Of a stretch of DNA of 64,000 bases, positions 58,386-63,647 are shown in pieces. Position 1 is the first letter of the stretch; every line of letters begins with the position of its first letter. A program made the translations under genes and the position numbers. The notes under the pieces are model-generated. The model was not told where the DNA came from. It ran no database searches and worked only from the letters and a program-made list of their open reading frames with translations. This stretch comes from an uncultured Litoreibacter sp. (lineage in GTDB: Bacteria; Pseudomonadota; Alphaproteobacteria; Rhodobacterales; Rhodobacteraceae). The stretch spans positions 806,001 to 870,000 of the forward strand of contig CANLQL010000001.1 in NCBI GenBank assembly GCA_947493265.1. Direction: 5' to 3'.

Positions 58386-58462
58386 GCGCTGGTAGCTCAG
58401 TTGGATAGAGTACTTGACTACGAATCAAGGGGTCGGGGGTTCGAATCCTCCCCAGCGCGCCA
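58386..58462 (+). tRNA. tRNA-Arg (anticodon ACG)
   Basis: A 77-base cloverleaf with an encoded CCA end. The acceptor GCGCTGG pairs with CCAGCGC (58452-58458) and the discriminator is G. The anticodon stem CTTGA/TCAAG encloses loop CTACGAA with anticodon ACG, whose A34 would be deaminated to inosine to read CGN codons. The T-arm contains TTCGAAT. It sits at the boundary between housekeeping genes and an accessory region. Confidence 0.96.
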
Positions 58463-59060
58463 TTTTGTTGAGTTAAATTATTGTTTTATAATAATTTTCA
58501 CACTCTAACTTCTCACGGTTCCCCCAAAAATTCCCCCAGATCAATTGTCAATGTAAAGAAGTTAGTCCGAGTAGCTCAAGCAGACCTGGTCTGCTTAAAA
58601 GACGAATGTCTTGCCTAGGGGACTGTCACGCAACATTGAAACAATACACCAGCGGCGACAATGGTCCATCCGCGCCGGGGGCAATACTATTCTGCAAATG
58701 AACATGCTGCGATCGATCTAATGACCGCTCTGAGCCCTCTTTGCTAGTTTTCTGTGACGCGGCGAAAGTCGGCTTCTGGGCGGGCGAACCGAAAAACGAC
58801 ATAGCTGGACAAGGATCTCCCAATACTCAGCGTGGAGGCTTGCCAACCTTGGCCATCTCAAGAGTATAGGTGGCCTCAAAATTGGATCCAGAGTCACCAA
58901 CGTTGCAATTCCGACGCTAAGAGGCTAAGTGAGTGATACGAAAGTTGCGGTTCTCTGCGGCATAGGCGCATCAGCCTGCCAGAGCGAACAACAACCCTCC
59001 ATCATGAAAATTCAGCTGTCACGTCCTGTAGCGGGGATCTGATGTTTGGGAAGGTTGCCG
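58463..59060 (+). other. 600-base stretch without a supported gene, downstream of tRNA-Arg
   Basis: The first 80 bases are AT-rich and carry two CCCCCA-type tracts (CCCCCAAAAATTCCCCCAG near 58521), a pattern I associate with integration sites beside tRNA genes. No integrase, coding frame or second copy of the tRNA 3' end is visible here. The remainder looks like degraded intergenic DNA. Confidence 0.5.
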
Positions 59061-59372
59061 ATGTTATCGCGCACGACCACGTCAGTTGTGACATTTCTTA
59101 ATCCGTTTGTGGTCGCGGGATACACGGATGAACTGCCCCCGGACGAATACGAACTGTTGGCAGACGAAGACATCGTGCAGATCCACAGTTTTGCGTCATG
59201 CCGACGGACCGCAACGTTTCTATTGATCAATTGGCAGGCAGGAAAATCAGAGCTGCGCGCAACGGATCACCGTGACCTGGAGTTGGTTCTGGCGCAGGAA
59301 CGGGCCGCCGCGAACAAACACGAAATCAAAAATAGTGCGGCGGCGCTTTCTCCGTCAGAGGATCAAAAATGA
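59061..59372 (+). CDS. Small conserved hypothetical protein
   Basis: A 103-residue protein. The central block FVVAGYTDELPPDEYELLADED followed by SCRRTATFL resembles a family of 80-110-residue proteins common in alphaproteobacteria, especially Rhizobiales, with no known function. The ATG at 59061 has GGGAAGG upstream; a TTG five codons earlier is an alternative. The stop overlaps the next gene (ATGA), so the two are coupled. Confidence 0.65.
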   Translation: MLSRTTTSVVTFLNPFVVAGYTDELPPDEYELLADEDIVQIHSFASCRRTATFLLINWQAGKSELRATDHRDLELVLAQERAAANKHEIKNSAAALSPSEDQK

Positions 59373-59722
59373 CATTTCCAGAATGGACGAAACCCGGTGT
59401 TTACGGTGCCTTGGTTGGCGCAGTTGCTATCTCTATTCTTGGCTTCACTTGGGGCGGCTGGACAACCGCAGGAAGTGCGGACGAGATGGCCCAAAACCTT
59501 GCGACAGAGGAAGTCACATTGGCGATGGTGCCAGTTTGCCTAAATCTGTCAAAAGCTGATGCAGAACGCACTACAAAACTAGCAACACTTCAAGAAGCTT
59601 CAAGCTTTCAGCGGCGCAATGCGATGATGGAAACAGGCTGGGCCACGCTGCCGGGTACTGATGCTCCAAGCCGAGATCTCGCAGAGGCCTGCCTTGCGGG
59701 GCTTGAGTTAGATGGATCGTAA
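59369..59722 (+). CDS. Small membrane-anchored conserved hypothetical protein
   Basis: A 117-residue protein starting MTFPEWTKPGVYGALVGAVA. One membrane helix covers about residues 10-30 (ending FTWGGWTTAGSA). A conserved soluble part contains LVPxC-like VPVCLNLSKAD and EASSFQRRNAMMETGWATLPG. Similar proteins of the same length are widespread in Rhizobiales; none has a described role that I know. It is translationally coupled to the preceding gene and overlaps the start of the next. Confidence 0.7.
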   Translation: MTFPEWTKPGVYGALVGAVAISILGFTWGGWTTAGSADEMAQNLATEEVTLAMVPVCLNLSKADAERTTKLATLQEASSFQRRNAMMETGWATLPGTDAPSRDLAEACLAGLELDGS

Positions 59723-60551
59723 ATCACAAGTAACAGAGCCTCGCCGGCCGCATTCCATGACTGCACAATATCCCTGCGGGCACACCAAAAATCACTCCCT
59801 ATTCGTAAGTTTGATTGCCGCAGTCTTGCTGCTTGCGATACCAGCTTTTGCCCAAACCATTGCTCCGGCAATGCCTGATAATGCCAGAGCTAAAAGTTAC
59901 GGTGACGGTTGGGAATGTAACATTGGATACCGGCTGAACGAAAATGCCTGCATCGCTGTGATTGTGCCGCAAAACGCATACGACACGAACCGGTCCTACG
60001 GCATCGGGTGGGAATGTCTGCATGGGTTTCGCAGGACCGACGAAACTGCATGTGTTGCAATAGAGGTGCCTGAGGGTGGATATTTGGACCCGACAGGCGA
60101 ACGGTGGCGTTGTTTGCGCGGCTACATCAAGGTCGATGACACATGTCAGGAAATCGTGTTGCCAGCAAATTCATACTTAGCAGATGCCTCATATGGCCCG
60201 ACGTGGACGTGCGAACGCGGGTTTGAAGCAACAGGCGACCTGTGTACTGCCATTGTGGTTCCGGCCAACGCCTATCTTAATGGGTCAAGATACGGTCAGG
60301 CTTGGACATGTGAGCGTGGCTTCTTTGAACAGGCTGGTTTGTGCGCAGCCGTCGCGATTCCCGCAAATGCATTTTTCGACGACGCTACCTACGGCACAGG
60401 GTGGAAGTGCGAGCGTGGATACGAAGCCTCAGGCGAGACATGCGAATTGATCGACATTCCCGAACACGCGCATTTGGACAGGTCAGGTAACCGGTGGGAA
60501 TGCAACAGGAACTTCCAAAAATCAAAGGGACTGTGTGTGCTCAACAACTAG
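59712..60551 (+). CDS. Secreted protein with seven two-cysteine repeats
   Basis: A 279-residue protein. A signal sequence (about 29-48, ending AIPAFA before QTIAP) is followed by seven tandem units of 31-33 residues. Each unit has the pattern YG-x2-W-x-C-x-RG(F/Y)-x4-7-C and then a (V/I)P-x-(N/H)A(Y/H)L linker. Cysteine pairs are at 69/80, 102/114, 134/145, 167/178, 200/211, 233/244 and 264/275. One disulfide per unit is the natural inference, giving a rod-like extracellular or periplasmic protein. The function is unknown. The first ATG (59712) overlaps the upstream gene; Met16 (59757) is an alternative start. Confidence 0.75.
   Translation: MDRKSQVTEPRRPHSMTAQYPCGHTKNHSLFVSLIAAVLLLAIPAFAQTIAPAMPDNARAKSYGDGWECNIGYRLNENACIAVIVPQNAYDTNRSYGIGWECLHGFRRTDETACVAIEVPEGGYLDPTGERWRCLRGYIKVDDTCQEIVLPANSYLADASYGPTWTCERGFEATGDLCTAIVVPANAYLNGSRYGQAWTCERGFFEQAGLCAAVAIPANAFFDDATYGTGWKCERGYEASGETCELIDIPEHAHLDRSGNRWECNRNFQKSKGLCVLNN
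59892..60545 (+). repeat. Seven ~99-base coding repeats
   Basis: The units correspond to the two-cysteine protein repeats. Nucleotide identity between units is moderate (short shared words such as TGTGAGCGTGG / TGCGAGCGTGG and GTTCCGGCCAACGC / GTTGCCAGCAAATTC-like). They are therefore old duplications held by selection on protein, not a recent tandem expansion. Confidence 0.6.
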
Positions 60552-60634: not shown

Positions 60635-61834
60635 ATGGAAACCAAATCTAATATTGTCGACACCATCCGCCGTCCTGTCAGGGGCGCGCAAGCGCCGCCA
60701 ATGACCAACGGCAATCCCACACTCGCAACTTCAAACCCGCAGGTCGCAGCACCACCATCGGCGGTCGTCTATTGCGAGGGGAACTTCGCTCAAATCGATG
60801 GCAAGACTGCGAATGGTCTTGTGCGCCATTCACAAGCGTATCGGATTCTTTCTGTCATCGACAGCGCCTATGTCGGACAAGACAGCGGATCCGTCCTCGA
60901 CGATACAATGAATCACATCCCTATCTTTGGTGATTTGGATGCTGCAGTTGCACATCAATCCGTCATTCCCGATACGTTGATCTATGGGATGGCCCCCTCA
61001 TCGGGGCGGCTTTCACCTGCGGATCGGGGCGTTGTTCTAAACGCAATTGAGCTTGGCATGAACATCGTGAGCGGGCTGCATGAATATCTGAGCGATGATA
61101 GAGAGATAGCCAACGCAGCATCTGAACGGAATGTCACGATCCGCGACATCCGCAAGCCGAAACCCAGCAAGGACATGCGACTATTCGATGGAAGTGTCGC
61201 TGGTGTAAAAGCGCTGCGCATTGCAGTTCTTGGGACCGATTGCGCCATTGGAAAGCGGACAACCGCAACTGTATTGGCGCATGCATTGAACGCAAAGGGC
61301 ATCAAGACAGTGCTTGTCGGCACGGGCCAGACCGGCCTGATGCAGGGTGCGAAATACGGGATCGCGATGGATGCTGTCCCTCCTCAGTTCTGCTGTGGCG
61401 AGCTTGAAGGCGCGATTGTTGCGGCTTCTGAAGCTGAACAACCCGATGTCATTTTGATTGAAGGTCAGGGCGCACTGAGCCATCCGGCGTTCTGCACATC
61501 CGCGTTTATCCTGCGCGGTAGCCAGCCGGATGCTGTCATCCTTCAGCACGCCCCTAAACGCGCACATCGCTGCGACTTTCCCAATATGCCAATGCCTGCC
61601 CCGACAAGTGAGATCGCCTTGATCGAAGCCTTTGCCGATACAAAAGTCATCGGTGTCACACTCAATCATGAGGGGATGTCCGACGCCGAAATCACCGACA
61701 CGATCGCTGCCCAATCACTCAAACTCGGGCTGCCGGTCACAGATGCATTGGCAAGGCCAGCTGCGCATCTGCTTGCTATGGTGGTCGCGGCATTCCCCGG
61801 ATTGACACAAAGGCCCGCTGTGGCGGTAATATGA
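60635..61834 (+). CDS. DUF1611 family protein (DgcN-like)
   Basis: A 399-residue cytosolic protein. A Rossmann-like N-terminal part (about 43-185) precedes a P-loop domain with LGTDCAIGKRTTA (about 199-211) and the later motifs GTGQTGLMQGAKYG and LIEGQGALSHPAF. This matches DUF1611, which includes DgcN, reported to N-acetylate D-glutamate before epimerisation to the L form by DgcA. An extra 40-residue Pro/Ala-rich N-terminus is unusual. The gene overlaps the racemase gene by four bases (ATGA). A role in D-amino-acid metabolism is inferred. Confidence 0.85.
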   Translation: METKSNIVDTIRRPVRGAQAPPMTNGNPTLATSNPQVAAPPSAVVYCEGNFAQIDGKTANGLVRHSQAYRILSVIDSAYVGQDSGSVLDDTMNHIPIFGDLDAAVAHQSVIPDTLIYGMAPSSGRLSPADRGVVLNAIELGMNIVSGLHEYLSDDREIANAASERNVTIRDIRKPKPSKDMRLFDGSVAGVKALRIAVLGTDCAIGKRTTATVLAHALNAKGIKTVLVGTGQTGLMQGAKYGIAMDAVPPQFCCGELEGAIVAASEAEQPDVILIEGQGALSHPAFCTSAFILRGSQPDAVILQHAPKRAHRCDFPNMPMPAPTSEIALIEAFADTKVIGVTLNHEGMSDAEITDTIAAQSLKLGLPVTDALARPAAHLLAMVVAAFPGLTQRPAVAVI

Positions 61835-62952
61835 GCTGCCCGCGCATCGAAGTGGATCTTGGCAAAATCCGGTGCAACACGCAGACACTTGTTAGGCGTT
61901 TAGGCCCGCGTGGGATCAGAGTAACTGGCGTAACCAAGGCTGTCTGCGGGCATCCTGCGATCGCTCAGGCTATGCTCGATGGCGGGGCCTCAGGGCTTGC
62001 AGATGCACGTATTAGCAATGTGCAAAGGCTAAGGGCAGCTGGCATGACAGGCTCTATCGCTCTGATCCGTACACCGATGTTAAGCCAGGCCGATCAAGTC
62101 GTTCGGTCCTGTGAAGCGAGCTATAACACAGAAATATTAGTCATTTCGGCACTGGCCGTCGCCGCGATCCGCAATGGTTCAGTCCACGGTATCATCTTAA
62201 TGGTCGAGATGGGCGATCAGCGGGACGGAATATTGCCCGAGAACTTGGCTGACATTACGCAGCAGGTCATGCAAATGCCTGGGGTAGCGTTGAAAGGGAT
62301 TGGCACAAACTTTGCGTGCTTAAACGGGCTTGCACCGACTGCGCTGCAATTGGCCGCTTTTTGCGATCTCGCGAATGAGATCGAGGGGGTATGCGGCCCA
62401 TTCCTTCAGATCGTTTCCGGTGGCGGGTCCAGCAATCTGCCGTGGGCGCTTGGCGAACACGCGACGGGTCGTGTCAACGACCTCCGTCTGGGTGAGGCGA
62501 TACTTTTGGGTGTCGAACCCGTGTCGGGCGACCAGATCGGCGGGATGTACACGGACGCTTTCACGCTTGCTGCCGAAGTTATTGAAACAGATGCAAAACC
62601 TACGCCTTTCCCTATCGCCCTGATCGATCCAATACCGAAACGACTTCGCATTGAGCCAACCAGGGGTACCTCTAAGCGCATGATCCTCTCGATGGGACAT
62701 CAGGACACTGACATTTTGGGGCTTTCAATGCCTGTTGGAAGCACATTGATCGGTGCAACCAGCGATCATCTTGTCATTGGAACGTCCCGACCTCTGCCAG
62801 CGGTGGGTTCCGAGGTGAGATTCCAGATGAATTACAATGCGTTGATGCACGCAATGGCCGCGCCCGACATCAAAGTAAGACTCTTGGGCGTTCACCCCAC
62901 AACACCAGCACGGCACACTCAGGGCAAGTCCGACCACTTGGCGCTGGTTTGA
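61831..62952 (+). CDS. PLP-dependent alanine/ornithine racemase-like protein
   Basis: A 373-residue fold-type III PLP enzyme. The N-terminal barrel begins IEVDLGKIRCNT and the PLP lysine is Lys36 in GVTKAVCGHP. The VCGHP context is that of the ornithine racemase (Orr)/YhfX-like subgroup rather than classical Alr. VSGGGSSNLPWAL lies in the phosphate-binding region, and the C-terminal beta-domain (about 245-360) is complete. It follows the DUF1611 gene with an ATGA overlap. The substrate is probably an amino acid or a modified amino acid, but its identity is unknown. Confidence 0.85.
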   Translation: MSCPRIEVDLGKIRCNTQTLVRRLGPRGIRVTGVTKAVCGHPAIAQAMLDGGASGLADARISNVQRLRAAGMTGSIALIRTPMLSQADQVVRSCEASYNTEILVISALAVAAIRNGSVHGIILMVEMGDQRDGILPENLADITQQVMQMPGVALKGIGTNFACLNGLAPTALQLAAFCDLANEIEGVCGPFLQIVSGGGSSNLPWALGEHATGRVNDLRLGEAILLGVEPVSGDQIGGMYTDAFTLAAEVIETDAKPTPFPIALIDPIPKRLRIEPTRGTSKRMILSMGHQDTDILGLSMPVGSTLIGATSDHLVIGTSRPLPAVGSEVRFQMNYNALMHAMAAPDIKVRLLGVHPTTPARHTQGKSDHLALV

Positions 62953-63001: not shown

Positions 63002-63235
63002 TTGACGAAACTCACAAAAAGCAATCTGTTTAAGATGTATGACTCCAAACCGGAAACCGCGATGGAAAAGACGACGCGTGTCGTCAGACAAATGGTCGAA
63101 GAAGAAACGGAACAACGACTTGCTAAGATCTCTCGGCTACGCAGTACGCGCCTCGAAAGAGAAGCGAACACGCCATCCGAAACGACGGCGAAAACAGCGC
63201 GCAAATTGCGATCCTCAAGAACCGTTTCAAAATGA
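63002..63235 (+). CDS. Small charged conserved hypothetical protein
   Basis: A 77-residue basic protein starting at TTG (63002) with AAAGGA 9 bases upstream. The pattern KMYDSKPETAMEKTTRVVRQ followed by a Glu-rich and then Lys/Arg-rich segment resembles short uncharacterised alphaproteobacterial proteins. It is probably helical. It lies 49 bases downstream of the racemase gene, so it may be on the same transcript. Confidence 0.5.
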   Translation: MTKLTKSNLFKMYDSKPETAMEKTTRVVRQMVEEETEQRLAKISRLRSTRLEREANTPSETTAKTARKLRSSRTVSK

Positions 63236-63365
63236 TGATAGAGCTTCGGCGAAATTGCTTTGGGTCGAGTGCTTGGCTTGGCAACAGGCATTACAATCAG
63301 CATGAAATTGTCTTGCGCTGTTTTCAGAGCTTCCAATCGTCCCAACCGATAGCAAGGATCCATCC

Positions 63366-63647
63366 ATGACAAACGCGGAGTGTTCCCCAGAAAAAATTCA
63401 CTATATCTGCCAGACTTATGTCGAAACGAAGGCTGGGCGCGATGGACAGGCAGGCCTGAAAATTGCCAAGCAATTTGAATATTCCACAGCGTCAGAAGCG
63501 CAAAACAGAGCTGAACGAGAAGCTCAATCTAGCGAATGTGCAGGTGCTGACGCCTACATGGTTGCTGAAGATCCAACTAGTGGAGAAGTCGGTGACCCAA
63601 GCTTCCTTGTAAGGCTAGGCAATGTCCCCGAATTTGACGGTTATTAG
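63366..63647 (+). CDS. Small conserved hypothetical protein
   Basis: A 93-residue soluble protein. YICQTYVETKAGRDGQAGLKI, then EAQNRAEREAQSSECAGADAY and FLVRLGNVPEF, resembles short proteins frequent in Rhizobiales that carry an N-terminal beta-strand, a middle helix and a VRLGxVPEF end. No function is known. It starts at an ATG at 63366 and stands alone. Confidence 0.6.
   Translation: MTNAECSPEKIHYICQTYVETKAGRDGQAGLKIAKQFEYSTASEAQNRAEREAQSSECAGADAYMVAEDPTSGEVGDPSFLVRLGNVPEFDGY

What the first reader, a model, noticed from the sequence alone, without database searches (positions are those of the whole stretch)
60635..62952. Coupled DUF1611 protein and PLP racemase: possible alternative D-amino-acid pathway
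DgcN (DUF1611) is reported to act with DgcA, an enolase-superfamily racemase, to convert D-glutamate through N-acetylated intermediates. Here a DUF1611 protein overlaps instead a fold-type III PLP racemase of the ornithine-racemase type. That suggests either a non-homologous replacement of DgcA or a different substrate. The four-base ATGA overlap indicates coordinated production. The DUF1611 protein also has a 40-residue N-terminal extension.
Basis: partly seen in the sequence, partly recalled or inferred. Interest (0 to 1): 0.65.

Follow-up and report, generated by a model that had tools for sequence, protein, structure and literature searches.

The report
Coupled DUF1611 enzyme and amino-acid racemase
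Two neighbouring genes, one for a probable amino-acid acylating enzyme and one for a vitamin-B6-dependent racemase, form a widely conserved but apparently unstudied pair that sits on mobile DNA here and exists beside, not instead of, the known D-glutamate pathway.

Summary
In detail: a 399-aa DUF1611 protein (60635-61834) is followed, with a 4-base ATGA overlap, by a 373-aa fold-type III PLP racemase of the Orr type (61831-62952). The pair is not local: the overlap recurs in 79 of 80 Roseobacter-group loci and 27 of 28 more divergent loci. In 21 of 26 sampled same-phylum genomes with an Orr-type racemase, DUF1611 lies directly upstream, as in 8 of 9 genomes of a second phylum.

It is not a replacement of DgcA. 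The same genome holds a complete DgcN-DgcA pair elsewhere, as do 15 of the 21 pair genomes, own included; the two DUF1611 types are separate clades and did not swap partners in any locus tested. The paired racemases are also a clade apart from true Orr. A PLP racemase needs a free alpha-amino group, so the order of steps must differ from DgcN-DgcA.

Best reading: a mobile module in which the racemase makes the D-amino acid and the DUF1611 enzyme caps it. Substrate, acyl group and direction are inferred. Here the pair lies in a ~19.6-kb tRNA-Arg island. The searches run found no paper on it.

The parts
60635..61834 (+). DUF1611 protein (399 aa), DgcN-related, probable N-acyltransferase or other P-loop enzyme; first gene of the pair
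   Evidence: PF07755/PF17396; fold matches 2obn, 2g0t, 7xrj
60635..60757 (+). N-terminal extension (about 41 codons), disordered in the model, its sequence not conserved outside the Roseobacter group
61232..61255 (+). P-loop GTDCAIGK (residues 200-207); G200, T201, D202, G206 and K207 are conserved in both DUF1611 types
61831..61834 (+). ATGA stop/start overlap of the two genes
   Evidence: conserved
61831..62952 (+). fold-type III PLP racemase (373 aa), Orr-related but in a separate clade
   Evidence: PF01168, NF040742 260.7 of 480 bits; tree
61936..61938 (+). codon of Lys36, the PLP-binding lysine by alignment with alanine racemases
59046..59372 (+). 108-aa ORF upstream (TTG start), seen also in other Roseobacter-group loci
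59369..59722 (+). 117-aa protein with a hydrophobic N-terminal stretch; recurrent upstream neighbour of the pair, also in 5 of 18 non-Roseobacter loci
   Evidence: no Pfam match
59712..60551 (+). 279-aa protein with repeated YGxGWxCxRGY-like units; marginal EGF_MSP1_1 match (28.8 bits, cut-off 27)
63002..63235 (+). small basic TKLTKxNLFK protein (77 aa, TTG start) downstream
   Evidence: no Pfam match
63366..63647 (+). 93-aa protein downstream, in 70 of 89 Roseobacter-group loci
   Evidence: no Pfam match
58386..58462 (+). tRNA-Arg (ACG) whose 3' end bounds the island that carries the pair
58449..58465 (+). 17-bp direct repeat at the left border (right copy outside the window at contig 1: 884055-884071)

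Best explanation
The pair is a two-enzyme module. The PLP racemase inverts the alpha carbon of a free amino acid (shown: family, PLP lysine and other conserved family residues intact; inferred: active on an amino acid). The DUF1611 partner, a paralogue of the D-glutamate N-acetyltransferase DgcN, then acylates one enantiomer, most likely the D form, and so pulls the racemisation to one side (inferred). Because a PLP racemase must form a Schiff base with a free alpha-amino group, racemisation comes before acylation, the reverse of DgcN-DgcA. The 4-base overlap should make the two proteins in a fixed ratio, perhaps for a complex (inferred). The module is accessory and mobile, and works beside DgcN-DgcA and the housekeeping racemases. 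Its substrate is not known; the separate clade and marker residues argue against simple ornithine racemisation.
For: Near-universal adjacency and NTGA overlap. Partner choice: in 16 of 16 bacterial DgcN-type loci examined (own, 14 other pair genomes, characterised CF6-2) a DgcA match lies 9-166 bases away on the same strand and there is no Orr-type gene; a DgcA match is in 0 of 27 paired loci, 0 of 80 Roseobacter-group loci and 0 of 30 divergent loci. Separate DUF1611 clades, 100/100 and 100/99, yet 37 positions shared by nearly all rows of both types, including the P-loop, TGQ, EGQG, H283, H305, R309. Paired racemases are one clade, 100/99; W205 and E126 in 49 of 49 and R or K214 in 48 of 49, where the 8 rows without a DUF1611 neighbour have L, D and G. 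PLP lysine K36 in 57 of 57 rows. PLP racemases act through an external aldimine with the substrate alpha-amino group; enolase-type N-succinyl amino-acid racemases ligate the amide carbonyl to a metal (PMC8142540, passages). The one divergent locus with a gene between the two (L143) has an M20-family gene there, a family that includes N-acyl-amino-acid deacylases. Haloarchaea place DUF1611 directly before another racemase-type gene, dipeptide epimerase (4 of 4 regions read). Own alr and a MurI-like gene elsewhere.
Against: No activity is shown for either protein. The M20 gene is seen in one locus only and is below every NCBIfam cut-off shown; S51 peptidase (L088, L146) and N-formylglutamate amidohydrolase (L091) neighbours are sporadic; most pairs have no metabolic neighbour that names a substrate. 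A P-loop closest to dethiobiotin synthetase is not obviously needed for CoA-dependent acetylation. Vibrio plasmids hold DUF1611 relatives (56% and 38% identity) without the racemase, a phage has a DgcN-type DUF1611 with neither partner, and 4 of 26 genomes hold an Orr-type racemase without any DUF1611. The structure model of the racemase failed (mean pLDDT 46), so its pocket was not modelled.
Confidence: 0.45

Rival explanations
1. The DUF1611 enzyme acylates the side-chain amine of a diamino acid (ornithine, lysine, diaminobutyrate) and the racemase then works on the side-chain-protected substrate, whose alpha-amine stays free. The reader's order (acylation first) would be kept with a new substrate.
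For: The racemase family includes ornithine racemase (L109 and L112 pass the Orr cut-off). A free alpha-amine satisfies PLP chemistry. The M20 family includes acetylornithine deacetylase (weak model match).
Against: The DgcN pathway is described for acidic D-amino acids and their amides (PMC12363236, passage). Paired racemases are not in the true-Orr clade and differ at W205, K/R214, E126.
Confidence: 0.18
2. In this clade the DUF1611 protein is an ATP-using ligase or carboxylase-like enzyme (dethiobiotin-synthetase-like P-loop) that activates or amidates the D-amino acid made by the racemase, and is not an acetyltransferase.
For: Nearest fold outside DUF1611 is dethiobiotin synthetase, Z 13.1 over 175 residues. 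P-loop residues are nearly invariant. Weak TIGR00347 bioD match, 17.1 of 83.3 bits.
Against: 7xrj, titled N-acetyltransferase DgcN-25328, has the same fold and the P-loop is shared with DgcN rows, so the P-loop does not by itself indicate ligation; the rows ranked after dethiobiotin synthetase are tied with it within 1 Z.
Confidence: 0.2
3. One reading: a non-homologous replacement of DgcA in the same D-glutamate route.
For: DUF1611 first and racemase second, closely spaced, in both systems.
Against: DgcA and DgcN are present and linked in the same genome and in 15 of 21 pair genomes, own included; separate clades; a PLP enzyme cannot racemise N-acetyl-glutamate by its known chemistry. Six pair genomes show no second DUF1611, so a substitute role there is not excluded by gene content alone.
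Confidence: 0.05
4. The two genes act in separate reactions and are kept together only as hitch-hikers in mobile stress-related islands.
For: Pair on a tRNA-Arg island here, on plasmids, and near extra GroEL/GroES or HflK/HflC genes in several loci.
Against: The flanks change while the pair and its 4-base overlap stay, across two phyla.
Confidence: 0.08

Closest known systems
[quoted passage not shown]
   Same: DUF1611 first, racemase second, close together on one strand (7-base overlap in Pseudoalteromonas sp. CF6-2; 16 of 16 loci); same DUF1611 fold and P-loop
   Different: Racemase of a different fold and chemistry; DUF1611 in a separate clade, 171.3 of 480 bits for DgcN; both systems coexist in one genome
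Ornithine racemase Orr (NF040742)
   Same: Fold-type III PLP family; K36, R131, R219, D312-H313 and Y335 in 57 of 57 rows
   Different: 260.7 of 480 bits; separate clade; W205, K/R214, E126; partner is DUF1611
Haloarchaeal DUF1611 - dipeptide epimerase pairs
   Same: DUF1611 directly upstream of a racemase-type gene; 4-base overlap in L151 and L153, 1-base in L152
   Different: Dipeptide epimerase partner; the one row placed in the tree (L111) lies outside the pair clade; no overlap in L111
TM0796 (2g0t) and Ava_3511 (2obn), DUF1611 structures of unknown function
   Same: Closest solved relatives by sequence (2g0t 1.6e-47) and by fold (2obn Z 26.0, 2g0t Z 21.8)
   Different: No function assigned in the entry titles; partner genes not examined

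Membership tests
DUF1611 (PF07755 + PF17396) | Pfam gathering scores 25 and 22.6 bits | tested here: met
   233.8 and 89.8 bits
DUF1611 (PF07755 + PF17396) | Two-domain fold of the solved members | tested here: met
   2obn Z 26.0, 2g0t Z 21.8, 7xrj Z 20.7 over 304-317 residues, model mean pLDDT 68
DgcN (NF041892 equivalog) | Curated cut-off 480 bits | tested here: not met
   171.3 bits; the genome's other DUF1611 has 556.3
DgcN (NF041892 equivalog) | Linked to DgcA | tested here: not met
   No DgcA match at the pair locus; DgcA sits beside the other DUF1611
DgcN (NF041892 equivalog) | N-acetyltransferase activity on D-Glu and related D-amino acids | not testable with these tools
   Needs assay
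Fold-type III PLP racemase (PF01168) | Pfam gathering score 24.1 bits | tested here: met
   88.1 bits
Fold-type III PLP racemase (PF01168) | PLP-binding lysine | tested here: met
   K36 aligned to the alanine racemase lysine region, invariant in 32 of 32 and 57 of 57 rows
Ornithine racemase Orr (NF040742) | Curated cut-off 480 bits | tested here: not met
   260.7 bits; L109 546.6 and L112 520.3 pass
Ornithine racemase Orr (NF040742) | Groups with true Orr in a tree | tested here: not met
   Paired racemases form their own side of a branch, 100/99, 49 of 57 rows
Ornithine racemase Orr (NF040742) | Racemises ornithine | not testable with these tools
   Needs assay
DgcA (NF042940) | Match to the enolase-superfamily DgcA model | tested here: not met
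   P0002 matches only PLP racemase models

The most novel reading that the evidence does not exclude
DUF1611 enzymes are the constant half of a translationally coupled racemase/acyltransferase module whose racemase half has been exchanged between two unrelated folds (enolase-type in DgcN-DgcA and haloarchaea, PLP-type here). The exchange reverses the order of the steps, so the PLP version makes an N-acyl-D-amino acid from an ordinary L-amino acid: a previously undescribed, horizontally spread D-amino-acid product in marine proteobacteria and a second phylum.
Probability: 0.3. Interest if true: 0.7.

Novelty: new variant of a known kind. Interest (0 to 1): 0.5.

Why it matters
D-amino acids are a notable part of refractory marine organic nitrogen, and DgcN-DgcA is a recent addition to their turnover. 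Surveys that count 'dgcN' by DUF1611 similarity alone could mix a second system with an unrelated partner into that pathway. If the pair makes an N-acyl-D-amino acid, it is a new metabolite-forming module carried on islands and plasmids; if it acts on another substrate, it is still an untested enzyme pair with a strong, testable partner prediction.

Tried and rejected
Replacement of DgcA: rejected for this genome. Sole source of D-Ala or D-Glu: unlikely, since the genome has alr over the cut-off (225.3 of 168 bits) and one MurI-like match just under it (139.9 of 146.65). Defence system: no PADLOC match for the pair or three close neighbours; an AAA protein elsewhere in the island has only weak matches (best 22.7 bits, 1.5e-05). 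Phage gene: a scan for close relatives of the racemase in viral contigs found none; one 27.5% match in phage records; DUF1611 in 34 phage records, of Erwinia and Dickeya phages, none of which has a racemase match. Structure of the racemase: model too poor to use, so no pocket comparison. GroEL/HflKC proximity was not tested against a control and is reported as noticed only. Controls of the family searches: Orr rings in 1 of 14 named genomes (Thermotoga maritima), DUF1611 in 3 of 14 (also Synechococcus elongatus and Haloferax volcanii); whether the two genes are adjacent in T. maritima could not be seen, and the other two show DUF1611 without Orr. Literature: searches gave no paper on the DUF1611-PLP racemase pair (listings only, except the passages cited). 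The primary DgcN-DgcA paper is not held, so it is known here only through citing papers and recall. The library lacks most subscription papers, so absence from it is weak evidence.

Rows dropped or not seen: the tree and the comparison used 57 DUF1611 rows, of them 36 paired (every eighth Roseobacter-group locus plus the others, without L101, a duplicate of L096). One search aligned 32 racemases and 34 DUF1611 proteins out of the 81 Roseobacter-group pairs then held (one search returned the best 80 of 150 relatives). The racemase trees took every sixth of those 80 loci. One search left out ORFs under 80 aa. One search listed 60 of 102 plasmid records. L098 holds an N stretch in its N-terminal extension; L120 has no start codon in the traced frame. 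In one search match ends, not ORFs, were used for the overlap; one search replaces that count.
Full report
WHAT IS THERE. The window holds a 399-aa DUF1611 protein at 60635-61834 and a 373-aa fold-type III PLP racemase at 61831-62952, overlapping by ATGA. Pfam places them in PF07755/PF17396 and PF01168. Against the curated NCBIfam models they are clear relatives but far below cut-off: DgcN 171.3 of 480 bits, racem_Orr 260.7 of 480. A Shine-Dalgarno-like GAGAGA lies upstream of the ATG at 60635 (read by eye). The extension before the DUF1611 core is 37 residues longer than in the genome's own DgcN. It varies freely outside its first 22 codons, its sequence is not conserved outside the Roseobacter group and it is predicted disordered, so I see it as a linker or tether, not a domain.

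THE HOST. The window is contig 1: 806001-870000 of a 3.52-Mb, 5-contig genome. I place it in the Roseobacter group by inference: its family includes a genome whose 84,850-base contig carrying the pair has the length and the match positions of the Phaeobacter porticola plasmid pP97_c, and the closest named loci bear Roseobacter-group titles.

THE SAME GENOME HAS DgcN-DgcA. A second DUF1611 lies on contig 4. It scores 556.3 bits for DgcN (cut-off 480); the next gene scores 493.8 for DgcA (cut-off 400); a D-amino-acid transaminase follows (387.9 bits for PRK06680, cut-off 320). The pair in the window is therefore an additional system.

HOW WIDESPREAD. Of 385 genomes of the window's class, 15 have an Orr-type racemase at E<=1e-20; of 398 genomes of its phylum, 14; 26 different genomes in all (three appear in both). 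A DUF1611 domain lies just upstream on the same strand in 21 of the 26; in one (G064) both genes are on cut contigs; four have no DUF1611. In the phylum of the genome that holds L084 (record titled Blastopirellula; Planctomycetota in the listing), 9 of 246 genomes have the racemase; all 9 have DUF1611, 8 directly adjacent and one separated by a single gene. L084 itself is 78% identical to the window protein, so it may be recent transfer or contamination. In the window's own family a close DUF1611 homologue (E<=1e-100) is in 43 of 394 genomes; the listed genome of the same genus has an 80% copy while genomes outside the genus have up to 90%: a patchy gene, as expected of a mobile one. Of 150 named relatives found, the best 80 were returned; they are 78-92% identical and all 80 have the racemase next door. 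On plasmids, 21 records match the racemase; 7 of them are listed with an adjacent DUF1611, four in Vibrio (42 of 102 DUF1611 records were not listed).

THE OVERLAP. A start codon inside the DUF1611 stop (NTGA) is found in 79 of 80 Roseobacter-group loci, 27 of 28 divergent loci (two of them Roseobacter-group plasmids) and 7 of 7 other Roseobacter-group loci, the window included. The 80th (L032) has a racemase match broken in two. The one divergent exception, L143, has an M20-family gene between the two.

TWO DUF1611 TYPES, TWO PARTNERS. I fetched the second DUF1611 of the 14 other pair genomes that have one. With the own genome and the characterised Pseudoalteromonas sp. CF6-2 locus, 16 of 16 have a DgcA match 9-166 bases away on the same strand and none an Orr-type gene. 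A DgcA match is in 0 of 27 paired loci, 0 of the 80 loci and 0 of 30 loci that include the second phylum. So 15 of the 21 pair genomes, own included, run both systems, and 6 have one DUF1611, the paired one. A phage DUF1611 (L124) scores closer to DgcN and has neither partner. In a maximum-likelihood tree of 57 rows the DgcN rows (with the phage row) and the paired rows (with two Vibrio rows that lack the racemase) are split by long, fully supported branches; haloarchaeal and Streptomyces rows lie outside both (several long branches, flagged by the program). Still, 37 columns are the same in nearly all rows of both types, among them the P-loop, T230-G231-Q232, E276-G277-Q278-G279, H283, H305 and R309; 23 columns are fixed differently. 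Which of these are catalytic in DgcN I do not know.

THE RACEMASE. K36 (the PLP lysine by alignment), R131, R219, D312-H313 and Y335 are in 57 of 57 rows, so the enzyme should be a working PLP racemase. In the tree the 49 paired rows, from at least two classes and the second phylum, are one side of a 100/99 branch; true Orr (Acetoanaerobium 546.6 bits, Ilyobacter 520.3 bits) and six other racemases, whose fetched stretches hold no DUF1611, are on the other. The paired rows have W205 and E126 in 49 of 49 and R or K214 in 48 of 49; the eight others have L, D and G. The added positive charge five residues from R219 hints at a substrate unlike ornithine, but the AlphaFold model was too poor to place it.

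WHY NOT A DgcA SUBSTITUTE. PLP racemases work through an external aldimine with the substrate's alpha-amino group; in N-succinyl amino-acid racemases of the enolase kind the amide carbonyl is bound to a metal (PMC8142540, passages read). N-acetyl-D-glutamate has no free alpha-amine. Either the racemase comes first and the DUF1611 enzyme caps its product, or the acyl group goes on a side chain. I favour the first at about 0.45 against 0.18. The dgcN route is described as a newly identified irreversible racemisation pathway for acidic D-amino acids and their amides (PMC12363236, passage); the enzyme names and EC numbers are in PMC11747546 (passage). PMC10845958 (passage) mentions the route in Shewanella. 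The primary paper was not available.

HINTS OF AN ACYL PATHWAY. The gene between the pair in L143 is M20 family by Pfam (96.8 bits, cut-off 24.6); its best NCBIfam match is an M20 family peptidase model (467 of 503 bits), and N-acyl-amino-acid deacylase models match lower, all under cut-off. L146 has a family S51 peptidase overlapping the racemase stop by four bases, L088 the same family convergent, L091 an N-formylglutamate amidohydrolase nearby. Haloarchaeal DUF1611 genes precede dipeptide epimerases in 4 of 4 regions read, one with a D-aminoacylase upstream. These are few and could be chance; they are leads, not proof.

MOBILITY. The tRNA-Arg 3' end (17 bases, window 58449-58465) recurs at contig 1: 884055-884071, 76 bases past an integrase gene (882686-883978). 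The pair thus sits in an island of about 19.6 kb that runs out of the window. In Roseobacter-group genomes it travels with a 117-aa protein and a YGxGWxCxRGY-repeat protein (each in 66 of 81 loci) and small downstream proteins; the 117-aa gene is also upstream in 5 of 18 non-Roseobacter loci. GroEL genes are within the fetched stretch in 4 of 18 and 7 of 89 loci (two of the four are related loci), and HflK/HflC in L102, L106, L123 and L141.

VERDICT. No paper on it was found in the searches named, yet annotation already shows both names side by side, and the function rests on inference. I rate it a new variant of a known kind, interest 0.5.

Noticed in passing
window 58386-58465 and contig 1: 882686-884071 (L003, L142): A ~19.6-kb genomic island integrated at tRNA-Arg(ACG), with 17-bp direct repeats and an integrase; by eye it also carries a histidine kinase/response regulator, an IS1-like transposase (66.7 of 100 bits) and AAA proteins.
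   Followed up: partly
window 59369-60551 and 63002-63647: A conserved Roseobacter-group cassette of uncharacterised genes around the pair, including a protein with repeated YGxGWxCxRGY-like units.
   Followed up: partly
L054:550-1549 and similar loci: In some Roseobacter-group loci a BLUF blue-light sensor and a 2OG-Fe(II) oxygenase lie upstream of the cassette.
   Followed up: no
L089, L095, L098, L101, L104 (GroEL/ES); L102, L106, L123, L141 (HflK/HflC): Extra GroEL/GroES or HflK/HflC genes recur near the pair, often on plasmids; no control for chance was run.
   Followed up: partly
L143:6016-7464: An M20-family gene sits between DUF1611 and the racemase in one genome.
   Followed up: partly
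L146:7005-7751, L088:7889-8635: Family S51 peptidase gene next to the racemase in two distant genomes, once with a 4-base overlap.
   Followed up: partly
L107, L108, L116-L118: Orr-like racemases of 595-608 aa with a long C-terminal extension and no DUF1611 in the fetched stretch; in L108 beside D-amino acid dehydrogenase and, further up, agmatinase.
   Followed up: no
L124 (Dickeya phage vB_DsoM_AD1): A DUF1611 gene in jumbo phages of Dickeya and Erwinia; in AD1 it overlaps a gene annotated as putative asparagine synthase.
   Followed up: no
L141 (Vibrio coralliilyticus pVs58): A pair-type DUF1611 without the racemase, followed by hflK-hflC.
   Followed up: no
L095, L098, L103 at the racemase end: A small cysteine-rich (zinc-ribbon-like, by eye) protein with a CLRCxxxF...GxRxCxRCK motif overlaps the racemase end.
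   Followed up: no
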